From NCBI GenBank assembly GCA_004369045.1, contig ML213508.1, forward strand, positions 1,350,976 through 1,414,975: 64,000 bases of DNA, read 5' to 3'. The DNA is from Heliocybe sulcata. Lineage: Eukaryota; Basidiomycota; Agaricomycetes; Gloeophyllales; Gloeophyllaceae. The position numbers were made by a program, and so were the translations under genes. Within the stretch, counting starts at the first letter, position 1; every line of letters begins with the position of its first letter. The notes under the pieces are model-generated. The model was not told the origin of the DNA. It did not search any database and was given only the letters and a program-made list of their open reading frames with translations. Positions 3,050 to 63,955 of the stretch are shown piece by piece.

Positions 3050-4548
3050 ACTATTGCATCTATTGTCAACAAGTATTTGAATGACCTTGGGCGACTCCTC
3101 CCGGAGAAGGCTTCAGATGGTCAGGCAAGACAGGAGGCTTGTGCCGGATTCCGGAAGCTATCTCAAGTTGGCGAAAGTTGGTTGGGGAAGGCTGCAGAGA
3201 AGGTGATGGGCAAGGTGGTGAGAGGAGTGACTCGTTTCAAGGTCTGTGGATGCCGACATAGTCCTTCATACATGACTCACTCATCTATTACAGGTTGCCA
3301 AAGCGCCAAAGCTGACTCATCCTATCAGAATCAGGCGGGTCATCCTGTTGCCGTATGGCATCAAGGTATGTTCTGAGGTCATGGCATTGTCTGGCAAAGC
3401 AGTGCTTACAATGCAAGCAGAGCAATAACAAGATCCGTACAACTGTTGCCCCTCAGCCTATGGATCTCCAGACAACACTGCATCCAGATGGCCTTACCAC
3501 AGAGCGTGATGGCAACTCAGTGTTGGAGTTCTGATGGGAGTGGAGCTCCAAGGCTATTGACAACTGGCTCTGCAATCTACTCCCAAATCCCTTTGAATAT
3601 CTGGATGCTCATTATGGCATACCTGAAGAGGGTGTATACCACTGGAAGCTGTGCATCAAGAGCAGGAAAAAGCTAGCTGTGGTAGAGAGGACTGGGAAGT
3701 ACACTGGTCAAGACATGTTTGTGGTCAGAGGTGGCCCTGGCAAGAACAGCGACAATTATGCTGTCTACTTCAGTAAGCCCCATTGTGGCTGCTGGGATCC
3801 TCTTTCATCTGATGTCCTCTAGCCACAGTCAATCATATCCCAAAGTTGGTTTATACCAACTGGGCCATCGCCCTCAGCCAGGCTCAGGAGGGTCTACCTG
3901 AAGTCATTGGTGCAGGGGAGGATCCTGGCGATCCAACCACTGCTGAGGAGGCCTCTTCTGACTCTGAAGAAGAGGGGTCGTCCCACCTGTTGTACAAGGG
4001 CAAGTCAGTGGCCAGGCGAAAGGAGAGATTGTTTGTGGAGAGCGATGTTGAGGGTTCCGAGAGCAGCGAGTCATCAACTTCTGGCAAGGAAGGGCATGGG
4101 TCAGATGGGGGTGAGCGAAGTGAGGCTCTTGTGGAGGGCAGTGGGCTGGCTGGATGTAAGTCTGCTCATTTGTTGAGGAAGAGGAAGTGGAGCTATGTAG
4201 AAGTCAGTGACGGAGAAGACATAGCTGGAGGGTGGGATGCGGAATTTGTCCAGGGCACCAGCACGAAGAGGCTGCAACTGGACAACAACAACAGCAATGG
4301 AGCTGGTTGTGAGTGGTCACCTCCTGGTTGATGAACATTTGAACTAACATTCTGTGACAGCACATGCAAACCCCTTTGATATTGATTCTGACTTTAATGC
4401 ATATGCTGGTACTACAAATGACTTCTTCTTATTTCCAACAGCCAGCAATATCACTCAGCCCTCTGCCTCCGGAAGTGGCTCCGGTCTGTCCACCTCAAAG
4501 TTCACAATGCCATCACCAGGCAAGCTGTGCACAAACCCGTGGGCTTAA
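3050..4548 (+). pseudogene. Decayed multi-exon gene of an unrecognised family
   Basis: Several exons join cleanly in frame across consensus introns: about 3050-3239, 3287-3364, about 3434-3769, 3821-4307 and about 4363-4548. The central part contains VAPQPMDLQTTLHPDGL and NPFEYLDAHYGIPEEGVYHW. The C-terminal half is an acidic, Ser/Glu-rich low-complexity tract followed by a Ser/Gly linker and a stop at 4546-4548. The core resembles, from memory, hypothetical proteins present in many copies in mushroom genomes; I cannot give it a function. One in-frame TGA near 3530 interrupts an otherwise continuous frame, so the copy is probably dead or carries a recent mutation. The 5' end is uncertain: an open frame from 2801 may hold earlier exons. 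It lies directly upstream of a Helitron fragment and may be cargo of mobile DNA. Confidence 0.45.
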
Positions 4549-4895
4549 GGATGGGAACCCTAGGATCACAGCCAAGTACATAGGAAAATAGGTTGCAGTA
4601 AAATACAATAGTCTATATAATGGAAGTCATCATTGAATGCCATCCTTGGCTGACTGAAGAGTGTTAGTCTGAAACCCATGGCAGCCCTATGGGAAATAGG
4701 TGGCATACTTGGAGTTGAACAATGTGGATGAAAAAATATGTGCTCGCTCCGAAGGATGATCAATATATTTGTGCAAGTGATGGGACACTGAATGCTGTTG
4801 TCCCAATAATGGGTAATGATTATGCGGTATTAATCAGGAGCAAAAAATATATGCGCAAAACATTGTACTATATGCGGTGGTGATTAAATGTTCAA
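4549..4895. other. AT-rich spacer before the Helitron
   Basis: No gene seen. GC content falls sharply here relative to the preceding gene. The last bases (4892-4909) contain CAAATGGACCATCATAG, which recurs exactly at 15925-15941 at the other edge of the transposon island. Confidence 0.5.
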
Positions 4896-6460
4896 ATGGA
4901 CCATCATAGTTTATCACTTCCTCAGTATAAATATTTTGGTTCTGCTCTTATTTGGATATGCCTGGGATTAACTTGGGTTAACTCTGTTTCAGTTTGTACC
5001 AATCAGCCAAGATTACTCGGACTGCTAGCAGAGTTTGATGCTGTGAATAATAGCTCCAATATATTAGCTTCAATGTCTTTATCTGATCCCTTCCCTGCTC
5101 CATGTCTTCCTTCAGAAAATATAGATATATATTGCACTTCTGATGCTGCTGCTTCTCATTCCATTTCTTATATATTAGAATATGATTCTGCTGAAGGTAA
5201 ACAATATCCATTATATCTAAGCTTTTCCATGATCCAATCAATCCATGAGAATATTGTCATGCTTTTCTTACAATTTCAATCAGAAAATTGGGCTATCTTT
5301 GCTGCTACTCTTGTTGGTCTCTCAATTGTCAGGAATACCATAAGGCATCATAATTGTATTGCCATGATACACAAATATCTCAAATTATTTCATAACAAAC
5401 TCCTCCACTGTCAGTTGAATCAATTCTTCTACTATTTGATGCAGGGAAATGCTTCTTTGTATCCACAGGTTAAGAGTCAATGTGGGACAGCCAATATTGC
5501 TAAGTTTACCAGTAGCGATCCAAGTGCATATAACATACCCAGGATAAATCAAATTGGAGGGGCAGTATGGCTTACCAGAGCCATATTCAGCAAAGAAGAT
5601 ATCCTCAAATATCCATATGTGATTCCGGATAGCTCTCATTCTTTGTCTATTTTGAATAGCCCTCATGTCCACTTCAAGTTCTTGGATTATTGCTTGTGGG
5701 ATGAAGCTGTGTATATGTACAGAAGTGAAGATAGTGTAATCTTTAGCAAGATACCACACTCCCGTTTAGCAATGAATTTACCTAAAGTCAGGTTACAGGT
5801 GCTGGCTGAGCTGCATGGATTAACCATTCCGGGAAAATGCTCAGTTGCTGAATTCAGAGATACTATTATGAGACATGAGTGCAAGAATTGTCCAGAGTAT
5901 CATACTGTATTGTTAGCTTATATGCCTGGTTCCAAAACAGCCTACTTTCAAGAAATCACAGCACAAAGACGGAACAACAATCACAGGAATTGAAGGGTGA
6001 CAACCAGAAAATGATGTATATAGCGTCAAGTGATAGTACTGAAGATATTAAATTTCCACCCAAGTCTACATCCAAAGAACTGTTACAGAAAATTATCTAT
6101 GATTTTGTTGATGCTCAGAAACCTACATTAATATAAGAGTCTGGCTGTACTGTATGTGGAGTTCTTTGTCCTCTATCAGTAATGGGTGATATTGGAAATT
6201 ACCAGCATCAAATGCATCTTTTAACTATTCCTGACAAGCTTGTTACCCAGAAGGAAAGATTTACATCAGCAGATCCCATTGAAAGTATCCCTGAACCTAT
6301 CCTAGCACATAATAAAAAGCATGTATGTCTTGAGTGTGTTATTTCTCTGGAGAAAGGCTGAGCTCCAGACCAAGCATTAGCTAATGGTTTATGGTCGGGT
6401 AATATACCTAATGAGCTACAAGACCTTACACTAGCTGAAAAGTTCATGGTAGCAAAGGTG
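4896..6460 (+). mobile_element. Helitron fragment, N-terminal part (DUF6570-like region)
   Basis: AT-rich open frame 4896-5993 (365 codons) reads into a Cys/His-bearing segment with LHGLTIPGKCSVAEF followed by HECKNC, the arrangement seen ahead of the Helitron helicase-like domain in fungal Helitrons. The homology continues in another frame (from about 5960) with KSTSKELLQKIIYDF and then CTVCGVLC, HVCLEC and finally ALANGLWSGNIPNELQDLT and LAEK. That last block matches the consensus 'LANGLW-G-IP-EL-LTF-EK' that precedes the Rep domain. A frame change near 5960-5990 and in-frame stops at 6134 and near 6360 show it is dead. The homology stops at about 6460, exactly where the long inverted repeat begins, so the Rep and helicase domains are missing. 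Confidence 0.75.
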
Positions 6461-6530
6461 CGGTGAAAGGCACTAACACGCAATGAAACCCGCAAAATGA
6501 GACCTAAAGGGAGACACACCCACAAAGCAT

Positions 6531-6550
6531 AGCACCAATCCCTTGGTGCT
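6531..6550. other. Short hairpin B, left arm
   Basis: AGCACCAA and TTGGTGCT form an 8 bp perfect stem around a 4-base loop, extendable by one pair. It is the mirror copy of 11424-11443. Confidence 0.75.
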
Positions 6551-7521
6551 AGATGGATGCGAGGTCCAGGGTAATGAGGGGTATGATAACATTCAGAGGG
6601 ATAGGGTGTGGGTAAGACATGTAGTTGGGGCTAAAGGTAGGTTGGCACTGACCAGTCAGAGTCATGTGGTAGTCTCAGATCGATACACTCATTTCAGGAG
6701 TTGCTTGTATCGGACTCCGCTTGACAATGCAATTCTAAGGCACTCGGTGCATGCTTCTAAAAATAACTTCTCAAGCTGTTGCGGAGCGCATGCTGGTCAC
6801 ATGGACTCGGAGGGAGTGGATTCAGGGTCACCTATGTGATGCGATCGAGGCATGCATACAACACCATCAGTGTGCTGCGCGTAACTCTAAAACTTGAACA
6901 GACTCAAACACGATTAATGATACTATCAGTGCATGAGGCTGGACTTAGGAAAACTCGAACTTGAGGGATTTTACTCGCCGCGCGTGCTGTTGGAAGGTTC
7001 GCGATAAACTCTGGGTGAAGTCGGAAGGCAGACGAAAGCCTTATTCTCTGGAGGAAACTCTGGTGCCGAGAATGAAATATGAAGGGTGAAGATAACTTGT
7101 ATTTCTGAGACAAAGAGACAGAGATTAAGTACAAACATCGCCACTACACTACTCACAGTTGAACATGCACAGAAAACCAAACTCCCGCAACCCATCTCCT
7201 GTGCCATGCGCTCACCCACAAGGCGCACATTGCCCCAACTCCTTCTACCAATCCCGTTGTCTCCTTGCAGTGCAGTGCCTGCATGAGTACGCTTGTAGCC
7301 TAGCTTGAAACACGCGGTAAGTCTTGTCCTCACGCTACGCCATATGAGACCTTGTGTCGATGCAGCAATGCCACAGTAACTTGAGTGGCAGGTGTAGTTG
7401 CCGAAGAGGGGTGCAGGCATGCCAAAAGAGGAAGTGGGTTGGGCGGGTGATGCGTTGATGAGACACTGACACTTGACAAGACCCGAAACAAAGACCTAGA
7501 AAGAACAAACAACCACACAAT

Positions 7522-7541
7522 ACCACCAAATCCTTGGTGGT
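7522..7541. other. Short hairpin A, left arm
   Basis: ACCACCAA and TTGGTGGT form an 8 bp stem around a 4-base loop, extendable to 10 pairs by flanking A-T pairs. Mirror copy of 10433-10452 and paralogous to hairpin B. Confidence 0.75.
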
Positions 7542-8274
7542 ATGTAGTTGCAAGGTCCGGCGAATCAAAGGGTATAGATTAGTTTGAGGGGAACAATGAG
7601 ATGGAAGACATGCAATGGGGATGGGCCTTTGATACGAGGATCATAGCACACAGCATTTGTATGGCCGGTGCTAACAAACTGAAGTTGCTAAAGCGAAGCA
7701 GCAACAGTGACAGTGACAGCAGTGCTGACAGTGACAGCAACAGTGACAACCTAAACTTTTGACAATGATGGTGAACAGATTTACTAAGACACATGAGGTC
7801 GCTTCGGAGAGGAGTACTGGATTGAGCGCGTACAATACTAGCAGTTGTTGACTTTTAGAATGATGTTGGCAGAAACTCTTGACGAAGTCAGAAGACACGA
7901 TGAGCACCTTGGTCACTGAAGACTCTGATGCTTAACTGAGATGAGAACAGGAGAAAGTAACTTGGATTGTACAAACAGAAAATTGTCCTTAAATACAAGT
8001 ACACTACAGTCTACTAACGCTACCTTGTTGTCCTCCTATTGTCTCGCTGTTCACCTGAGTCACTTCACCGATAATCAAACCATATGCTGTGCCCGGTTGT
8101 CACTCGCCCCGCTATTGAGCCCATTGTCCAATCCTAACCCACTAACCACTCCTTCAACCAAAGCACAGTGATGCTGCACATGCTATCTCGAGCGAGTCAT
8201 ATGAGCGCCGCCACTAGCCCCACTGTGCGAAACAATTGTAGATGTCGATAGTGTGTTGGCGAGCGAGATCAATA

Positions 8275-9699
8275 TGTAAATTAAGGTACATCACTATAGA
8301 GATAAAATCAGACTTCCAAGTGGCAGAATAGGTGGATGGTAACATTCTAGGAGGCTGGAGCTGGGGGGAGAACCAGCTGGAAGGGTAGGGGGGTGCACTA
8401 ATTCTATCCTGAGAGATATTGCCCAAGTTATTGGGTCAAACTGTGGTCCCATATGGGGTCATAAGGATCCCTGATTTATGGGAGATTCCACCCAGCAGGG
8501 CCCCCCCAATTTGGATATAAATCTCATATAATGTGACCAGATCTCCCCTACAGTTATACAAAGTGCCCATACATTTTATATAAATCCAATATAAAGCAAC
8601 CAGCAAAGGTATATAGCTTATATATATGCATATAATATGAGCCAGATTTGGTATAACACTATATAAATGCACCACCAAATGGCATGTATCCAGTATAACT
8701 GCCCTGCAAGTTTATATAAAGGCACCTCAATATCATATACCCCATATACAAATACAGCAGTGCAGTATACAATTCCATATAAACTGACAAACGGAGCATA
8801 CAAATGCAGTACAAACCTCCTGCCACATCTCATAAACCCAGTATAAATAGCCTGACATACCCTACAATTCTGGTATAAATCCAGAGCAATCCTATACACA
8901 CACAGTATAATGTCCCCTTAACCATACACAGTCAATATATACATCCTATATAACCCTGGCTCAATCATGTATAAGCATACCATAACATGGTCACATTATA
9001 TCCAGTATAATGTGACTACAAGCATAAACATATATGGAGTACTAAAGTGGTGCATATGAGTTTACCATAGTTGTGGTAAAATATATATATGAGTTAGGGC
9101 CCACTAGTGGGTTTCCGGCTCCCTCCATGCAATGCTGATAGGCCCCAATACGTTCTGGCCCCAGAAAACATGTTTCTCGATGCTTCTGTGTCATACAAGG
9201 GAACTCTGTGCTATTCTCAGTGACAGCGTCTATGGACTCTATATGCCAAACTGGACTATTCTTGGGCCACAGCACTTCCAGTTGACGTCAGCAAGGCCAC
9301 GTCAGTGCCGGCAACTGCTGCCTATTCAGTGTTGTCATCAGCAACTTGGCCAACATCATCATATCGGCCAACCTGTATTCAGTCAGAATGATGGCCCGCT
9401 CCTAGGCATCGGCGCTCTGCTCTCGACTCTGGTCTAGGTGTTGGCATGTCACTATTGAATGATGCATCACTTGCTGAAGCTCCAGCTGTGGTCCCACATG
9501 CTATTGTCCCTGCTTATCTGATCATATCGAGTCACATCTGCTTATGCCAAACTGGCCTGGCTCATCAAACAATAGACACTCGGTGCATGCTAGCAACATC
9601 CCCAATGTGGCCGACTTTGCTGATGTGCCGGAGCTGCTTGCCAAGACTCGGACTTCGGACCAGCGCTGCTTGAGCATATTCACTCACAATTAGACACCT
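8275..9699. other. Loop region between the inverted-repeat arms
   Basis: This 1.4 kb segment is single-copy in the window. The first two thirds are AT-rich and dominated by TATA-type motifs (see 8500-9015). From about 9100 to 9690 the base composition becomes GC-rich, with short frames that show no recognisable domain. No gene is called. Confidence 0.6.
8500..9015. repeat. TATA-motif-rich degenerate repeat array
   Basis: About twenty-five near-copies of TATAAA/TATACA/GTATAAT are spaced roughly every 10-35 bases through about 500 bases, separated by C-containing spacers. Longer recurring phrases include CCAGTATAA (near 8691, 8839, 9002) and a close relative ACAGTATAATG (8903), and TATATAAATCC / TATATAAATGC / GTATAAATCC. 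On the minus strand the frame reads as a degenerate Leu-Tyr/Ile-Tyr repeat of roughly 12 residues, consistent with an old minisatellite with a unit near 36 bases. No protein is claimed. Confidence 0.6.
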
Positions 9700-10432
9700 T
9701 ATTGATCTCGCTCGCCAACACACTATCGATATCTACAATTGTTTCGCACAGTGGGGCTAGTGGCGGCGCTCATATGACTCGCTCGAGATAGCATGTGCAG
9801 CATCACTGTGCTTTGGTTGAAGGAGTGGTTAGTGGGTTAGGATTGGACAATGGGCTCAATAGCGGGGCGAGTGACAACCGGGCACAGCATATGGTTTGAT
9901 TATCGGTGAAGTGACTCAGGTGAACAGCGAGACAATAGGAGGACAACAAGGTAGCGTTAGTAGACTGTAGTGTACTTGTATTTAAGGACAATTTTCTGTT
10001 TGTACAATCCAAGTTACTTTCTCCTGTTCTCATCTCAGTTAAGCATCAGAGTCTTCAGTGACCAAGGTGCTCATCGTGTCTTCTGACTTCGTCAAGAGTT
10101 TCTGCCAACATCATTCTAAAAGTCAACAACTGCTAGTATTGTACGCGCTCAATCCAGTACTCCTCTCCGAAGCGACCTCATGTGTCTTAGTAAATCTGTT
10201 CACCATCATTGTCAAAAGTTTAGGTTGTCACTGTTGCTGTCACTGTCAGCACTGCTGTCACTGTCACTGTTGCTGCTTCGCTTTAGCAACTTCAGTTTGT
10301 TAGCACCGGCCATACAAATGCTGTGTGCTATGATCCTCGTATCAAAGGCCCATCCCCATTGCATGTCTTCCATCTCATTGTTCCCCTCAAACTAATCTAT
10401 ACCCTTTGATTCGCCGGACCTTGCAACTACAT

Positions 10433-10452
10433 ACCACCAAGGATTTGGTGGT
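10433..10452. other. Short hairpin A, right arm
   Basis: Stem ACCACCAA / TTGGTGGT with loop GGAT; flanking AT and AT extend it to 10 pairs. Compare hairpin B at 11424, where the second pair is swapped from C-G to G-C. Confidence 0.78.
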
Positions 10453-11423
10453 ATTGTGTGGTTGTTTGTTCTTTCTAGGTCTTTGTTTCGGGTCTTGTCA
10501 AGTGTCAGTGTCTCATCAACGCATCACCCGCCCAACCCACTTCCTCTTTTGGCATGCCTGCACCCCTCTTCGGCAACTACACCTGCCACTCAAGTTACTG
10601 TGGCATTGCTGCATCGACACAAGGTCTCATATGGCGTAGCGTGAGGACAAGACTTACCGCGTGTTTCAAGCTAGGCTACAAGCGTACTCATGCAGGCACC
10701 GCACTGCAAGGAGACAACGGGATTGGTAGAAGGAGTTGGGGCAATGTGCGCCTTGTGGATGAGAGCATGGCACAGGAGATGGGTTGCGGGAGTTTGGTTT
10801 TCTGTGCATGTTCAACTGTGAGTAGTGTAGTGGCGATGTTTGTACTTAATCTCTGTCTCTTTGTCTCAGAAATACAAGTTATCTTCACCCTTCATATTTC
10901 ATTCTCGGCACCAGAGTTTCCTCCAGAGAATAAGGCTTTCGTCTGCCTTCCGACTTCACCCAGAGTTTATCGCAAACCTTCCAACAGCACGCGCGGCGAG
11001 TAAAATCCCTCAAGTTCGAGTTTTCCTAAGTCCAGCCTCATGCACTGATAGTATCATTAATCGTGTTTGAGTCTGTTCAAGTTTTAGAGTTACACGCAGC
11101 ACACTGATGGTGTTGTATGCATGCCTCGATCGCATCACATAGGTGACCCTGAATCCACTCCCTCCGAGTCCATGTGACCAGCATGCGCTCCGCAACAGCT
11201 TGAGAAGTTATTTTTAGAAGCATGCACCGAGTGCCTTAGAATTGCATTGTCAAGCGGAGTCCGATACAAGCAACTCCTGAAATGAGTGTATCGATCTGAG
11301 ACTACCACATGACTCTGACTGGTCAGTGCCAACCTACCTTTAGCCCCAACTACATGTCTTACCCACACCCTATCCCTCTGAATGTTATCATACCCCTCAT
11401 TACCCTGGACCTCGCATCCATCT

Positions 11424-11443
11424 AGCACCAAGGGATTGGTGCT
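11424..11443. other. Short hairpin B, right arm
   Basis: Stem AGCACCAA / TTGGTGCT with loop GGGA; one more T-A pair extends it to 9. Relative to hairpin A one stem pair differs on both sides so that pairing is kept, although the surrounding sub-units have diverged considerably. Confidence 0.78.
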
Positions 11444-11479
11444 ATGCTTTGTGGGTGTGTCTCCCCTTGGTCTCATTTT

Positions 11480-12840
11480 GCGGGTTTTGTTGCATGTTAG
11501 TGCCTTTCAGCACCTTGGCTGCATTCTCCTTGAACTTGCAGTTGGCCTCCAGATGCCCCTTGTAGTCACAGAATGTGCAGCGCATGCCTGAAGAGGAGTT
11601 GGAGCTGGCAGCAGTGATGGTACACATAGCGAGTGCAGTGTCGATGTTGTGGGTGGTGCACTGTGGAACACAGCATGAAGCTTGGTGCGGGCGAGGGAGT
11701 CGAGGAGGAGAAGGGAGGAGATGAAGCTGTTGTACTTGGTGGGAAGAGCACAGATGAGGGCCATAGCAGCAAGGTCATCACTGAGTTGGTCGATGGTAAA
11801 GCCAGCAGGGTGCAGGGCCTTGATATCCTGCAGCAGCTTGTTGCTGCAAGCAGTGAGAGAAACAAGGGTCTCCCCTTCCTCCTTGCGAAGGTTGAGGAGC
11901 GAGTCATAGGCATTGAAACATGCACCTGGCTTCTGCTGGATGTGCACATCCCGCAATCACTGCCACATCAAGTCCAGCTTGTCCTTCACCTCCTTCACAT
12001 GCACCTTCTGTGTGTCCTCAATTGCCAACCATATATGCCCTGCTGCCTGCACCTTGTGCTTCTCCCAGTCTCTTATCTCCTTACACTCCTCCAGGGTGAT
12101 GTTGGTCATGTCAGCAGGCAAGGGCACAGCACTGGGGTTGCTGGTGACATCCCAGAAGTTGAGAGTCTTCAGGAAGGCCTCCATGCTGTCAGCCCAGGTG
12201 CCGTAGTTGTGCTCCCTGAGGTCAGGGAACATTCACTTGGGTGTAGACATGACAGGGGAATGACATAGAGCAATGTAGAGCCATGGGATGTTGATGTGAG
12301 CAATAGGAGTGTAGGGTGAGTGTGGAAAGCAATAGGGAGTGCTAAGAGCTCAGAAAGACAAGTTGGAGTGAAAGCAGGAGAGTAGAAGCTCAGAAAGCAG
12401 TTCTGGCTGTCCAGAAGCATTCCTAGGCGAAATTGCGCAGTGAAAAAGTGTAGAGCAGAAATAGAAGGCTAAATTCGAGGTTCTGCAGTCTGGATGGACC
12501 ACTAGAAGGCGTGAAAAGTCGAATTGGAGATGGATGGAGGATGGATGGGTCCAGATGAGGTTGGATGTACCTCTAGAGTGCAGATGACAGGCTAAAAGTG
12601 TGATTTGAGAGTCCTAAAGTGTTGGGCTCATAACCTATCAAGCTGGGAAGCCTGGAGGTCTCAAACAGTGCACAGGGAAGCCTGAGTTGAGCTCTATTAA
12701 GTTGGATAAAGAAGAGAGCTTGACTCAGTGCCATTTTCACTCTTTGCAGAGCGTGGGAAGTGGCTTGGAACTATATAGACAAAATAGGAAAGTGAGAGAG
12801 AAAAGGTAGCTAAGAGGTCAAGTCAAAGAGGTAAGCAACA
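11480..12840 (-). mobile_element. Broken Ty1/Copia LTR-retrotransposon fossil: LTR-like end, primer site, gag
   Basis: On the minus strand the segment from about 12250 to 11480 encodes a Copia-type gag: a stretch reading NYGTWADSMEAFL, then VHVKEVKDKLDLMW, then LRKEEGETLVSL, and a CCHC-type zinc knuckle CTFCDYKGHLEANC. Protease, integrase, reverse transcriptase and RNase H are absent from the window. Upstream (12636-12840) is an LTR-like stretch beginning TGTTGCTTACC with a TATATAG box, followed by a probable primer-binding site at 12624-12635. The element is broken, with a few breaks in gag and everything beyond the zinc knuckle lost where the inverted-repeat arm begins. A second LTR was not found, so the age cannot be estimated from LTR divergence. 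Confidence 0.8.
12624..12635 (-). other. Probable half-tRNA-iMet primer-binding site of the Copia fossil
   Basis: The plus strand reads GGGCTCATAACC, identical to the anticodon stem-loop of eukaryotic initiator tRNA-Met, so the element's sense strand is complementary to it. Drosophila copia is known to prime from an internal (half) initiator-tRNA fragment in this same region. Position between an LTR-like stretch and gag fits. Confidence 0.65.
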
Positions 12841-13060
12841 GTTGAATGGTGTAGTGGCAAGGGCACCTACCTGCAGTCTGGAGGCTGCAGGTTCAATCCC
12901 AGGTAAGAGCACATTTTGTTTTGCACAAGTCTTGAGTGTTGCTGACCTCATAGGCATGAATGCTGACAAGTCTTTACTGGAGAAAAGTGTGCCAACCTTG
13001 ATAGATGTGGGAATTTGTGCCAAGAAGATGTGTGAACTTTATCTGTAGTCTTATTTCAAA
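12836..13060 (+). repeat. tRNA-like segment, possible SINE head
   Basis: A Pol III A-box-like TGGTGTAGTGG (12847-12857) and a B-box-like GGTTCAATCCC (about 12891-12901) are spaced as in a tRNA. A D-stem GTGT/GCAC can form, but the anticodon and T stems contain mismatches and no acceptor stem closes, so this is not a functional tRNA. The body beyond the B box has no known domain. A tRNA-derived SINE or tRNA relic is the likeliest reading. Its 5' edge coincides with the start of the LTR-like stretch at 12840. Confidence 0.4.
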
Positions 13061-16052: not shown

Positions 16053-18293
16053 TCATGGCATCAACAGCCACCGAGCCAGCAACTTGGCGAAGTTGGGCGT
16101 GCCGAGACCCGTAACGGGATCCCAGCCGGGCTCGGCGTCGAAGCCAACAGTGCCGCAGCCAGGGTTGGTACCATTGGTGATGTCGTTGAACGCGCTGGTG
16201 AAGGCGGAGGAGTAGATCTGTGGGCGCGTGAGCTATCAGAAGGCCAGACCAAGCCAGGTTGGACTCACGGTAGGGTTGATGAACCCGATGGGGCCCTTGC
16301 CGATGGCGAGGCGGGCATCGTTGATGGACGTCAGGATGGTGCCCACGACAGGGGAGGACGCGGAGGTACCGAACACGAGGGAGAACTCGCCGGCGACTGC
16401 TACGACGTAGTAGGCGCCGTTCGCGGACAGGTCTGGGAACGCACGCGACTATTCGGGATTAATTCATCAATCATTCTACTCAGGGTAGATAAGAAGGGGG
16501 AACGTACAGTGCCGGTGGTGTTGTACTGCGCAGACGAGTACTTGGGGGGGTATTTCGAGAGGTAGTGCTCGACGGCGCTCTTCTGGTACGAGGGCATGGC
16601 GAAGTAGTTGCTGAAGCCGCCGCCGCTCTGGATGACGTCCATGCAGGCGGACTCGGGCTGGTACACGCTGTGTCCCGAGACGACCTGGGTCGCGCCAACC
16701 GAAGTGATGTACGGGCACGTGCCGGGGAAGGAGGGGTTGAACCCGACCGCGTCAGCCGACTGGGAGCCTAATGCATTGCACCGCGCAGCTGAGTACAAAC
16801 GGCGCGAGCAAAGCGAGAGCGCGGCACCCACCATCGGAGTTCAAGCACAGCCCGCTGTTCCCTGCGACGCCGTTGTCGCCTGAACTGTACAGCACTGTCG
16901 TGCCCATCAGCCCGAGCTTCGCGTACTCGGCGCACTGGCGCGCGGCGTACGCAGGCGACAGGTCCGCCTCGTTGTACGCGTACGACGTGGAGATGACATA
17001 CGCGGGCTTGGTGGTGCCGCAGTCTTCGGGGCCCTCGTAGCCGCCGTACGGGTCGGGGTAGACGGCGTCCTGGGTGGGGTCGTCGCCGCCCTCGAAGGTA
17101 CAGTAGGACCCATCGAGGGCGTCGAGGAAGTTGTTGAAGGACGCGCCTTCCTCCATGTCGCCTGCTTGGTAGAGCGTGACCGGTTGAGGGTTCGTGAGGG
17201 CCATGCCGTATTGCAGATCGAGGTCGCTCTCGCCGTTGTAGCTGAATCCGGTGTAGTCGGTTTGTGCGTAGCCTGAGGGGGATGTCAGAAGATGGAAGAA
17301 ATAAATTCAGAACGGACTTGCCTCCGTCGATGGATACCTCTACTGGGGACTTGCCGACCTGGCTGGTCGAGAAGTTCTTGAAGAACATGTCCAAGTCCGA
17401 CTGCAGGTATGCCTGGGGAGTATATTCGACTACGGGGTATAAAGTCTGCTACTCGCATAGAAACTGCTAATACACTCACCAATACCATAGCTGTTCTTGC
17501 TAGTCGCAACAGGCCAGTAGACAAAGTCGTAGAGCGCCCTCAGACAGATCGGAGTAATCTGCTCATCACAGTTTGCCAACTGTGTAAACAGGTTCGCGAT
17601 CGTCCCCGTAGTCTTTGGTGACAAACCCGCCCCCGGCTGACCGATGTTGCTGAGCTTGTGACTGGACGCCTGAGTTGACTCGCCGCGCTTGATAACAGCA
17701 TCGAAATGAATGGAGGGCATAATGATGTCGACATGCTTGCTGACATGCTCGGGAACGTGATACGCGTCGCAAGCTACCGTCCCATTTTAGCTACGATATC
17801 AGCTAGGATAGACGATCCCCCACTCACCAACGTGCTCCTTGCCGGACTCGTGCCTGTATACATGGTATTCGGTCTGCAGAAGCTGCTCGGCTTCCTCCAC
17901 CGTCGCGTTCACCTCAATCCACGTCTTGGCCTTGCTGACCTTGATCCTGGAGGGAGCGATCCCAGATGCGGTGAGCCAGTCGTAGACGGTGCCAACCGTC
18001 TCCGGGGTGGGCCTGAAGGTTTCCGCCACCTTGCCGGCATTCCAGTGCTTCCCAAAGTTGGGCGACTCGGGATGCGACACGTCAAGCAGCAGCTCCTCGA
18101 GCCTGTCCATGTTGTTCTGCGTCAGTCCAATCCTCAATGGCAGCACCGCGGCGACATCATGCTTGTGCGAACGCGTCCATCCGGCGGGTGTGTGCGACCG
18201 CTTCTCATGCAGGACGTGCGGAGAAAGCAGGGGCTCCGCGACGACGAGGGCGACGAAGGAAAGGAGGGACAGAAATGAGCGCGAGAACAACAT
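16053..18293 (-). CDS. Sedolisin-family (S53) acid serine peptidase, TPP1-like, secreted
   Basis: Seven exons (18293-17828, 17773-17480, 17429-17322, 17272-16832, 16767-16508, 16448-16269, 16217-16053) give 637 codons in a single frame, a normal length for the family. Residues 1-20 form a signal peptide (MLFSRSFLSLLSFVALVVAE), followed by a Pro_kumamolisin propeptide. The catalytic Glu and Asp lie in GESDLDLQYG and the nucleophile Ser in FGTSASSP. RAFPDLSANG and GFDAEPGWDPVTGLGTPNF are the usual flanking blocks. The enzyme would act outside the cell or in an acidic compartment, removing tripeptides or cutting proteins at low pH. Intron 3 has a GC donor (GCAAGT). An upstream in-frame Met at 18341 is possible, but the chosen start places the signal peptide at the N-terminus. 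It is the first intact host gene after the transposon island. Confidence 0.93.
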
Positions 18294-20422
18294 GGCGGGC
18301 GTCGTTGCATGCGGGCATGGTGGGCATGCTTTTATGTGCACCCAGAGGCCCTGGCTATTACTGGACTCGACATCATAGATAAGAAGCCATGCTTGCAGGG
18401 ACGGGCGGATGAGATCACGAGCTTCCTTGATGGAAATTCCGTCGTCGGCTTGGAACCATCATTTATGTACGACACAAAGAACCCTGCCGTGCGTCCTCAG
18501 AGAAATGTGCAGACTCGCACTCACAAGACATTCGTCAGAGCTGCATAGCCCACCAAGCACACAGATGGCAGCTGTAGCACGTCGTTAAAACGAGGTGATG
18601 AAAGGACAAGACGACCGCCAGATTTTCGACGATCTGCGGGGAAATAGCCCAACCTGTAGCCGCCGGGAACAATCTCGCGGGTCCACGCGACTGCCGCAGG
18701 ACCCAGTGTACCCTCGCACATACAGCGAGTACCAGCGTCCGAGCAGTCCGTCTGTGAATGAGGGTCGGTGAAGAAAGAGTACCGGTCGTCGCTTTCCCCA
18801 CTGGTGGGATTTCTACCCGTGATGCTAGTCGGAGTCTGCCCAGGGACATTGGGAAGCAGCAACAGCAATTTTCAAGGCAGTTAGGCAGATAGACTGGATT
18901 GGGAGAGTGATATCGTGAGCTCAGACATGACCGAGGATTGAGCTTAGTTTTTGAGTCCTAGAATGAGCAGCGTGAGGAGTGAGTACTGAAGAGCTTCATC
19001 ACCTATGACCCTTCCGTGGATAAGAATTCAAATCCAGTTATGATGAGAATTACACTCCGGAAAGCATGACGTATTAAAACGGACATTATCAGAGGCAGTT
19101 GTACCGGGATGCATTTGGAATCTGGATGAGTTGATGTCCAGACAAGAGAAATATCTCCCAGATGGGCAAGGAACATACCAAATCAAGTCTCACATAACCA
19201 GATGAGACGGAGTCGTCGTCAACAGCGCCTTCAATTCACGCATGGCCCACAAATCCTGGGGGCTACTTTCTTCAGCACCACTCCTCGAGATGTGCACTGG
19301 ACTCACTCGGGCACGACCTATATCCCGCCATCCAGCTGTCCTCTGGGTCTCCGCCTGCTTCAGAAATAGACTTGCGCCAAGCACCGCTCTATAGATGCCT
19401 TTCTCCTCGATGAGGTTTAGCTGCGTCTTCGTCGGTCATATTACCTTAGGCCCGCTCGATGGCCTGAAACGCAAACCTGTTTCTGTCTGTCGTCCTGGTG
19501 ATACTCCATCTCGCGCTCATCGAGGTTGCGAGCGCTATACTCTCCTAGCTACTACGCAACCAAGTAAGCCTCACTTCAGGCCTCCTCCATTGGAACGCTA
19601 CCGATAACGTCCAAAATACCCGGAAAGCAAGCCTCGATATATCGTTTCCTGGCCAATCAAAGACCGAACAGGAACCCATTGACAGCAGGCCGAAAGAGGG
19701 ACAACGGAGAGAGGATGTCCTTACTGCATTCCGCGACTTAGATTTCCCACCAGGTGCGAGGATACTCCGCAACTTGTATCGTCTTGTGATCAGCGCGACA
19801 AGGTCAAGCCCGCGAACTTGGCTGAGACCGGATAGGTTAAGACAGAAGTTAACAAGTTATACGGCATGCCACATGGATACTATCTCCAATGAGGGCTGAA
19901 AGCACTTACTTTGCATCGCCGCGCTGTGAACATCCAGATTACGTTGCAGAGTTGCTCCGAGAGAGAGGTGGAGGAAGGCCCCTGCTTAAGTAAAAGGCGG
20001 GTTCTTGCCCTCGATGTTCGCTCACCGGAGAACTGAGCCCTGACTCATCCGCCGGCGTTAACTCGTAACAGGATTAAATATAAGTGATGCGCCCAACAGG
20101 GACAAGGCAAGTCGTAATAGAACGCCACCACATACCAGATCAGCCGTACCAGGAAAAGGCGGGAAGAGAGCTTGATACCGTCAACTTCTGTCATACGACA
20201 TCATGACAGTCTGGGGCACCGCGCTTATGTATTTGGATCCGGGGGCATCTTAAGTACTATATATGGCGAGAGTTATGAAGTTGCGTGCCGGACAGCAGGA
20301 GGGTTCGAACAGCCATTGACTAGACGATTGTAACCAGTTAAGGACGCGTATTAGACGACATTCCAAGTATCAAACTGTGATTCCACACCTTTCCCACTCG
20401 CATAGAAGCTCTGTCTGCCTCA
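18294..20422. other. Intergenic region, no supported gene
   Basis: About 2.1 kb between the sedolisin start and the end of dus3. A 115-codon minus-strand frame (18521-18868) and several shorter frames show no domain. I see no repeat or RNA gene. A TATATA stretch lies near 20259. Confidence 0.5.
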
Positions 20423-62347: not shown

Positions 62348-63955
62348 ATGGTTGCTGGGATCCGTCTCCCTGCGCGTCCACGCTTACCTTCGCGCTTCTC
62401 GAGCAGTATGCCGGTCAGGCCCCTAACCCTCGACTCTGTGAACCCCGCTATTTTGAAGGTGCAGTATGCCGTCCGAGGCGAGCTCGCAATCAAGGCAGAG
62501 GAACATCGTTTGAAGCTCACGAAGGACGATCATGGCTTGCCTTTCAAAAGAGTTATAAACTCGAATATTGGGAACCCTCAGCAGAAGGGGTTGGATCAGC
62601 CGCCAATAACATGGACGAGGCAGGTGCGTTGGCGCGTGGACAGTAACCTTGAATCGTGGTCTCAGGTCGACAGTCTTTAGATTTGTGCGTTGATGGAATG
62701 GCCAGCGCTCATGGATCTTGCGCCGCAAGTCTTTCCGAAGGATGTTATTGCTCGCGCGAAGGAGCTGCAGGAGGATATCGGGTCCATTGGCGCTTACTCT
62801 CATAGCCAGGGTGTTCCCCTCATCCGCAAGAGCGTCGCACAGTTCATCGAAGGCGAGTAGCATTCTCCCAAAATGATGAATGATATACTCATTCGCATCC
62901 TGTTAGAACGCGATGGCTATCCATCGAACCCTGACCATATCTTCTTGACTGCTGGAGCTTCCGCCGGCGTCTCCCTCCTCATCTCAATGCTCATCACTCC
63001 CCCAAAGTCCGGCATTCTCATTCCTATTCCTCAATACCCCTTGTACACCGCTACTCTCGCTCAACATTCCGGAATTGCTATCCCCTACCATCTCGATGAG
63101 GCATCGGAGTGGTCCACGTCTCTCCATGAGATTGAAGGAGCGCTGGAGAAGTCCTACAAGGACGGCATCGAGCCCAAGGCTCTCGTCATCATCAACCCAG
63201 GTAACCCAACAGGTGCTCTCCTAGACGAGCACACCCAGGAAGAGCTTATCAAGCTCTGCGAGAAGCACAATCTCGTTCTACTAGCAGACGAAGTGTACCA
63301 GAGCAACCTACACAGCCCTGACTCTCATCCCTTCATCTCCTTCAAAAAGCTCGTCTGCCGCATGAACTCCCCCGTCGCGCTCTTCTCCTTCCACTCCATC
63401 TCCAAGGGCGTGCAGGGCGAGTGCGGGCGGCGCGGCGGGTACTTCGAGTGCACGAACGTCCCCGACCCCATCCTCTCCCTGATCTACAAGATGGTCTCTG
63501 TCGGCCTCTGCCCGCCGCTGACGGGCCAGATCGGCGTGGACTGCATGGTGCGTCCGCCCAAGCCCGGCGACGAATCGTACCCGCTCTGGAAGAAGGAAAC
63601 GGACTCGACCCATGCGGCCCTGGCGTCGCGCACGAAGATCATGGCGGAGAGGCTGAACAAGCTGCCGGGCGTGTCGTGCGTGTCCTCGCCGGGCGCGTTG
63701 TACCTCTACCCGAAGCTTGAGCTGCCCGAGAGCGCGATCGAGGCGGCGAAGCAGGCTGGCAAGAGTCCGGATACCTTTTACGCGCTGCAGCTGTTGGACG
63801 AGACAGGTATTTGCGTCGTCCCCGGGGAGGGTTTCGGGAAGAAGGATGGGCACAACTATTACCGACTGACCTGTTTGTGCCCTGGTGTGGAAGAGTATGT
63901 GGGTGCGCTGGAACAGTTCCATGTGAACTTCATGAAGAAGTATGGTGGCTTGTAA
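62348..63955 (+). CDS. Alanine aminotransferase
   Basis: PLP-dependent transaminase interconverting alanine and 2-oxoglutarate with pyruvate and glutamate. The first exon gives MVAGIRLPARPRLPSRFSSS, a basic, acid-free stretch like a mitochondrial presequence, followed by a second Met (62408) opening PVRPLTLDSVNPAILKVQYAVRG, the cytosolic-type start. Then INSNIGNPQQKG, YSHSQGVPLIRKSVAQFIE, HIFLTAGASAGVSLL, IINPGNPTGALL, LLADEVYQ and the PLP Lys in SISKG, followed by GECGRRGGYFE. The C-terminus is FHVNFMKKYGGL; stop at 63953-63955. Only about three introns. One likely uses a GC donor (GCGAGT at 62853) because that keeps the conserved FIE-x-RDGYPS spacing. Confidence 0.95.

What the first reader, a model, noticed from the sequence alone, without database searches (positions are those of the whole stretch)
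6461..11513. Very long near-identical foldback: 1.8 kb arms, 1.4 kb loop
Arms 6461-8274 and 9700-11513 are reverse complements with centre near 8987 and only a handful of differences. Such a long, young palindrome is rare, and the outer ends interrupt a Helitron on one side and a Copia fossil on the other. If transcribed it would form a 1.8 kb double-stranded RNA, a possible natural trigger for RNA silencing of related elements. Alternatively it is a foldback transposon or a mis-assembly.
Basis: partly seen in the sequence, partly recalled or inferred. Interest (0 to 1): 0.7.

Follow-up and report, generated by a model that had tools for sequence, protein, structure and literature searches.

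The report
Recent mirror duplication of nested transposons
A 5-kb mirror-image stretch in an apparently fungal genome is a recently copied-and-flipped piece of a pile of dead transposons, most likely made during repair of a broken chromosome; it is not itself a mobile element, and a role in gene silencing is untested.

Summary
The foldback is real: arms 6464-8274 and 9700-11509, with 6 mismatches and no indel over the inner 1,766 bp. It is not a transposon. The right half (8275-11509, minus strand) is one TE nest inside a copia-type gag: a solo LTR "A" (family about 1,512 bp) carrying an inserted solo LTR "B" (1,383 bp) and half of a foldback element "R3". The left arm is an inverted copy of A 1-995 plus B 1-819. 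It abuts R3 some 15-25 bp short of the inner end of R3's inverted repeat. The 1,425-nt "loop" is the part of the same nest that was not copied. The outer 45 bp of the arms differ as much as unrelated A copies do (0.111; median of others 0.119). Left A interrupts a Helitron gene and right A interrupts gag, so the outer ends look like two separate A insertions. Among 43 genome matches to the A|B junction, only the two arms span it. Best explanation: a break near the centre of the R3 foldback, then inverted duplication with one homologous (A/A) and one non-homologous (B|R3) join. Misassembly is unlikely but not excluded without reads. Silencing is permitted (Piwi and RdRP genes present) but untested. 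By-product: R3 is a foldback family with 8-bp target duplications.

The parts
4896..6462 (+). Helitron gene fragment (left flank), cut inside DUF6570 by the left A insertion
   Evidence: Three other genome copies match through window 6462, two at 96%. Both 96% copies continue with ACACAATCGATG where the window has A. The C11 copy L057 has DUF6570 and Helitron_like_N. The window ORF 4896-5993 itself gave no Pfam match.
6464..7455 (+). Left arm, outer part: solo-LTR family A positions 1-995; the first about 45 bp belong to an independent A copy, the rest is copied from the right arm
   Evidence: Preceded by GCGG, fitting the family's NCGN 4-bp target duplication; the uninterrupted Helitron copies read GCGA there.
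7456..8274 (+). Left arm, inner part: solo-LTR B positions 1-819, truncated
8274..8275 (.). Non-homologous junction B819|R3, 1 nt of microhomology (A)
   Evidence: Of 28 genome matches to the 100 nt around it, only the window itself spans it.
8275..9109 (+). R3: one terminal inverted repeat of a foldback element (outer end CACTAGTG at 9109); its core and other repeat are absent
   Evidence: the R3 core has no match in the window
9110..9135 (-). 26 nt of LTR A that continue A beyond the B insertion; includes the 3' target-duplication copy GCAT (minus strand)
   Evidence: Same sequence follows A position 995 in other A copies
9136..10518 (-). Complete solo LTR B, TGATGAG...CCTATCA, 1,383 bp, inserted in A; flanked by GCGT / GCAT (one CpG-type difference)
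10519..11509 (-). Right arm, outer part: solo LTR A positions 1-995, inserted in gag at GTGC
   Evidence: the uninterrupted gag copies read GGTGC|AGAAGGTC at this site
11510..12232 (-). Degenerate copia-type gag fragment (right flank), cut by A; about 15 longer and many shorter related copies in the genome
   Evidence: weak Pfam match, below cut-off

Best explanation
A nest of dead transposons suffered an inverted duplication during repair of a chromosome break. SHOWN: two solo LTRs of family A lie in opposite orientation, one in a Helitron gene, one in a copia-type gag. The right one carries a nested solo LTR B and, 22-26 nt further on, one repeat of an R3 foldback element. The left arm is an inverted copy of A plus B 1-819 and joins R3's inner end directly. 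The 1,425-nt loop consists only of right-nest sequence that was not copied (B 820-1383, 26 nt of A, R3), with no filler. The missing continuations (rest of A, of the Helitron gene, of gag, and the R3 core) are not in the window. INFERRED: (1) a double-strand break near the centre of the R3 foldback, whose long inverted repeats can extrude a cruciform or hairpin; (2) inverted duplication, either by head-to-head joining of broken sister ends (one ending in R3, the other cut back to B819) or by invasion of the right A by the broken left A followed by copying and end joining; (3) on the Helitron side, the homologous junction lies inside A, between the last outer difference (6508) and the first inner one (6880). 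The polarity of the event cannot be read from the sequence.
For: Inner identity 99.66% (6 of 1,766 differ), while the next-best relative of either arm's A is 85-86% identical. Outer 45 bp: arm-to-arm distance 0.111 against a median of 0.119 among 703 pairs of 38 other A copies, and arm 1's outer end is closer to L020 and L041 (0.022) than to arm 2. Only 2 of 43 listed matches to a 201-nt A|B junction probe span the junction, both of them arms (40 of 85 candidates scored). Uninterrupted Helitron and gag copies define the two A insertion sites. Loop composition. R3's paired structure elsewhere: 18 of 26 other R3 inner ends are in inverted pairs. Helitron continuation, gag continuation, A remainder and R3 core give no match in the window. 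DSB near inverted repeats gives inverted duplications in yeast, with later capture at repeats (PMC10622511, abstract and outline seen); quasi-palindromes break (PMC3855049, abstract and outline seen).
Against: The outer-end argument rests on 45 bp in a family with much CpG decay, and the boundary was set after seeing the data; gene conversion that simply did not reach the arm ends could leave the same pattern. Pairwise distance 0.111 is typical but not extreme (45% of other pairs are as close or closer). The lost sequences were sought only in the window, not genome-wide. The R3 break is inferred from where the join lies (15-25 bp short of the repeat's inner end), not from an intermediate. No related strain shows the state before.
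Confidence: 0.7

Rival explanations
1. Old inverted duplication kept young by gene conversion: the arms arose long ago and the interior was homogenised recently, with the outer 45 bp escaping.
For: Another inverted LTR pair in this genome, L035 (1,520 bp, 96.6%), are each other's nearest relatives (0.975, next 0.934), as local conversion or local duplication would give. Difference-rich outer ends are expected where conversion tracts stop.
Against: Needs an inverted duplication of the A|B unit in any case, so it adds to the first explanation rather than replacing it. Other inverted A pairs are not homogenised: L017 82.5%, L029 71.8%, and L042's minus copy is closer to L040 than to its local partner.
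Confidence: 0.15
2. Assembly artefact: one A-B nest entered the contig twice, once flipped.
For: Long near-identical inverted repeats in TE nests are hard to assemble; no reads were available; the join 8274|8275 is unique to this place.
Against: The arms differ at 6 inner sites, 5 of them transitions and 3 CpG-type, with no homopolymer indel, and at 4 sites plus an indel near the outer ends. The two outer flanks are different elements cut at fitting LTR target sites, unlike a read that simply turns back on itself. No N in the window.
Confidence: 0.1
3. The palindrome is a foldback transposon (arms = its terminal inverted repeats).
For: Long inverted arms, short loop.
Against: A and B occur separately as dispersed solo LTRs with their own ends and 4-bp target duplications. 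The joined A|B unit occurs only here. The flanks come from two different elements and show no direct repeat.
Confidence: 0.02
4. A functional hairpin-RNA locus that feeds RNAi against A and B elements.
For: Piwi-domain genes at three places above cut-off and RdRP at six places. 244 of 927 A-part and 147 of 799 B-part 21-mers of the left arm match other copies exactly in the 44 loci examined.
Against: No transcript or small-RNA data. Dicer was not searched. Nothing in the sequence marks a dedicated promoter; the structure is fully explained as a rearrangement.
Confidence: 0.05

Closest known systems
DSB-induced inverted duplications (foldback inversions) in Saccharomyces cerevisiae, PMC10622511 (abstract and outline seen)
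   Same: Near-identical inverted arms; inverted repeats near the break; one end later resolved at a dispersed repeat
   Different: Here the arm is only 1.8 kb before the homologous exit in A, the inner join has 1 nt of homology, and it is a fixed product in a genome rather than an experiment
Foldback transposons, e.g. Tetris of Drosophila virilis, PMC4079207 (abstract and outline seen); FB and Galileo (recalled)
   Same: R3 inside the loop has long terminal inverted repeats, a short core and 8-bp target duplications, and no coding capacity seen
   Different: The 1.8-kb palindrome itself is not such an element; R3's relation to any transposase family was not determined
Solo LTRs of fungal LTR retrotransposons (general knowledge, recalled)
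   Same: A and B start TG, end CA, and lie between short target duplications
   Different: 4-bp duplications with a leaning to NCGN; full-length parent elements were not looked for

Membership tests
Foldback transposon (the whole palindrome 6464-11509) | Direct target-site duplication outside both arms | tested here: not met
   Left flank ...GGTGCGG and right flank GCACCTT... are no direct repeat; they belong to a Helitron gene and a gag
Foldback transposon (the whole palindrome 6464-11509) | Repeated as a unit elsewhere in the genome | tested here: not met
   Only the two arms span the A|B junction among 43 listed matches (40 of 85 candidates scored)
Foldback transposon (R3) | Long terminal inverted repeats with a short core, in several copies | tested here: met
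   18 of 26 R3 inner ends outside the window lie in 9 inverted pairs; repeats 94.7% alike over 850 bp in L053, 99.4% over 462 bp in L020; cores 122-199 bp in five loci
Foldback transposon (R3) | Target-site duplication | tested here: met
   Read by eye in the four pairs with both outer ends shown: L020 CAACCAGG, L014 CATCCTCC, L011 7 of 8 nt, L012 (same place as L053) TGCAAACA but 3 nt off the usual right end. The window copy cannot be tested, its other end is lost
Foldback transposon (R3) | Related autonomous transposase element | not tested
   No search made
Solo LTR (A) | TG...CA ends and short target duplication | tested here: met
   23 copies with both ends: 4-bp duplication exact in 6, one mismatch in 8, two or three mismatches in 9
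Solo LTR (B) | TG...CA ends and short target duplication | tested here: met
   7 copies with both ends including the window's: exact in 3, one mismatch in 1 (the window's), two or more in 3; two interrupted copies, L032 and L045, also read as exact by eye
Inverted duplication by break repair | Near-identical inverted arms with a single-copy loop that continues one arm without filler | tested here: met
   Loop = B 820-1383 + 26 nt A + R3, all contiguous with the right arm
Inverted duplication by break repair | State before the event in a related strain | not testable with these tools
   No relatives of this genome are held
Hairpin siRNA locus | Transcription and 20-25 nt RNAs from the arms | not testable with these tools
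   No RNA data

The most novel reading that the evidence does not exclude
Foldback transposons of the R3 type act as break points that seed larger palindromes from whatever transposons surround them. Such second-generation palindromes then make long hairpin RNA that matches the surrounding LTR families and feeds silencing, so that a transposon nest produces its own silencing locus.
Probability: 0.07. Interest if true: 0.65.

Novelty: new member of a known kind. Interest (0 to 1): 0.27.

Why it matters
It shows, in one readable case, how a long young palindrome can arise in a transposon nest without being a transposon: the loop is not an insertion but the unduplicated remainder, and the join lies almost at the centre of an older foldback element. 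If R3 elements turn out to mark many such junctions, foldback transposons would be testable as natural break sites in this genome.

Tried and rejected
The first idea that A is an LTR continuing into R3 (one 1.85-kb LTR) was dropped: all other A copies continue past position 995 with a different sequence, and A ends near 1,512. Autointegration of a retrotransposon into itself was considered, because the join first looked like an LTR end against an LTR interior; it was dropped once R3 proved to be a separate foldback element. A single insertion of the whole palindrome was rejected because the two flanks are different elements. The similarity of the two flanks (AGC[A/C]AAGGTGC) next to both A ends was considered as a template-switch microhomology; since both stretches are native to the intact Helitron and gag copies it is taken as coincidence, though a helper role cannot be excluded. 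Literature searches on palindromes, foldback elements and inverted duplications found no description of this case in the listings seen; one search returned no papers at all.

Full report
OBSERVATION. The inverted repeat is present as described. It is the only inverted pair of 60 nt or more that the repeat finder reports in the 64-kb window. Aligned over 6451-8274 and 9700-11520, the arms show 11 mismatches and two small indels. The differences cluster: 6 mismatches and no indel in the inner 1,766 bp, 4 mismatches and one indel in the outer 45 bp (Fisher p 3e-6, mismatches only 6e-5; boundary chosen after the fact). The window has no N.

WHAT THE ARMS ARE. A search of the window's own genome (31.6 Mb, 51 contigs) with the left arm gave 50 matches besides which the arm breaks into two separate dispersed repeats, positions 1-995 and 996-1814 (the list includes the two arms themselves). 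The first, A, starts TGAAAGG; its copies run to about 1,512 bp and end in TATCA. Among 23 copies with both ends in the fetched loci, a 4-bp target duplication is exact in 6 and has one mismatch in 8; 9 have two or three mismatches. The second, B, is 1,383 bp, TGATGAG...CCTATCA; of 7 copies with both ends, 3 have exact 4-bp duplications, one (the window's, GCGT/GCAT) has one mismatch and 3 have two or more. Both look like solo LTRs of related families. B also sits inside A in L032, L033 and L041, so the nesting is not special; but the particular A|B junction of the window is spanned only by the two arms among 43 listed matches (40 of 85 candidates were scored).

WHAT THE LOOP IS. The loop, 8275-9699, is not an insert. 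From right to left it is B 1383-820 (9699-9136 read on the minus strand continues the right-arm B), then 26 nt (9135-9110) that continue A beyond the B insertion, as seen in the A copies, then R3 (9109-8275). R3 copies elsewhere are 92-97% identical over their length in the best cases. Outside the window, 26 R3 inner ends were listed; 18 of them lie in 9 inverted pairs some 120-245 bp apart, 8 are single. Where both outer ends could be read (L011, L012, L014, L020) an 8-bp direct repeat flanks the pair, exact in three, 7 of 8 in L011; in L012 the right copy lies 3 nt beyond the usual end. R3 is therefore one terminal repeat of a foldback element. In the window its core and its other repeat are missing, and its inner end is cut 15-25 bp short of the inner end of the repeat, judged from the self-alignments of L053 and L055.

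THE TWO ENDS. Two Helitron copies (96%) match the left flank up to window 6462 and then continue with Helitron sequence; a third, at 73%, also ends its match at 6462. The C11 copy has DUF6570 and Helitron_like_N, and the A insertion falls inside DUF6570. Two gag copies continue past the right junction with gag sequence; the gag assignment by Pfam is weak (E 1.7e-4, below cut-off). So left A interrupts a Helitron gene and right A interrupts a gag. The Helitron continuation, the gag continuation, the rest of A and the R3 core have no match in the window; they were not sought as such genome-wide near this place. The outer 45 bp of the two arms are as different (0.111) as random pairs of A copies (703 pairs of 38 other copies, median 0.119; 45% are as close or closer), and arm 1 is closer there to L020 and L041 (0.022) than to arm 2. 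Over the first 992 bp the arms are 99.1% alike while the next relative is at 85-86%. The simple reading is two independent A insertions whose interior was made identical by copying.

MECHANISM. Shown: the anatomy above, a join B819|R3 with one shared base, no filler, a homologous transition within A between 6508 and 6880. Inferred: a break near the centre of the R3 foldback, then inverted duplication. Two routes give the same product: joining of sister ends, one ending in R3 and one cut back to B819, followed by exchange at A with the Helitron-borne A; or invasion of right A by a broken left A, copying through A into B, and end joining to R3. Yeast work shows that breaks near inverted repeats give inverted duplications and that these are later stabilised at dispersed repeats (PMC10622511; abstract and outline seen), and that quasi-palindromes cause breaks (PMC3855049; abstract and outline seen).

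RIVALS. Gene conversion may have kept the arms alike after an older duplication. For it: L035 holds another inverted A pair, 96.6% over 1,520 bp, nearest to each other. Against it as a general habit: the inverted A pairs in L017 (82.5%) and L029 (71.8%) are not homogenised, and in L042 one partner is nearer to a copy elsewhere. The loci were chosen because they hold these repeats, so this is no census. Misassembly cannot be excluded without reads, but the six inner differences are substitutions (five transitions, three CpG-type) without indels, and the flanks and target sites fit two real insertions. A silencing role is possible in principle: Piwi matches above cut-off lie at three places and RdRP matches above cut-off at six (Dicer not searched). 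Of the left arm's 21-mers, 244 of 927 in A and 147 of 799 in B match other copies exactly in 44 loci. There is no RNA evidence.

NOVELTY. The palindrome is a new instance of a known kind of rearrangement. Its interest lies in the clear anatomy and in the join near the centre of an older foldback element. The R3 family may be undescribed, the only search aimed at foldback elements in basidiomycetes, returned no paper, which is weak evidence. Age is not given: 0.34% divergence fits a recent event, but ongoing conversion would make it look younger.

Noticed in passing
window 8275-9109; L011, L012, L014, L020, L053: R3 foldback family: repeats of about 0.83-0.85 kb full of TATAAA-like motifs, cores of 122-199 bp, 8-bp target duplications, one end CACTAGTGGGCCC and the other AGTYGTGGGCCC; high identity suggests recent activity. 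Autonomous partner unknown.
   Followed up: partly
L017-L048 (A and B copies): A and B solo LTRs share a start region and lie in 4-bp duplications leaning to NCGN (CCGT, GCGG, CCGC, GCGC, CCGG), which suggests an integration preference around CpG.
   Followed up: partly
L035 1555-5477: A second long inverted LTR pair: two A copies head to head, 1,520 bp at 96.6%, about 890 bp apart, each other's nearest relatives.
   Followed up: partly
window 4500-13000 against 20000-60000: CpG observed/expected 0.19 in the Helitron and copia flanks and 0.54 in the palindrome, against 1.02 in the genic part: transposon sequence is losing CpG, as under cytosine methylation; six DNA_methylase matches above cut-off exist in the genome.
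   Followed up: partly
window 16400-18341 minus; 62873-63955 plus: Ordinary genes beside the nest: a sedolisin-like protease (Pro-kumamolisin activation domain) and an alanine-aminotransferase-like protein.
   Followed up: no
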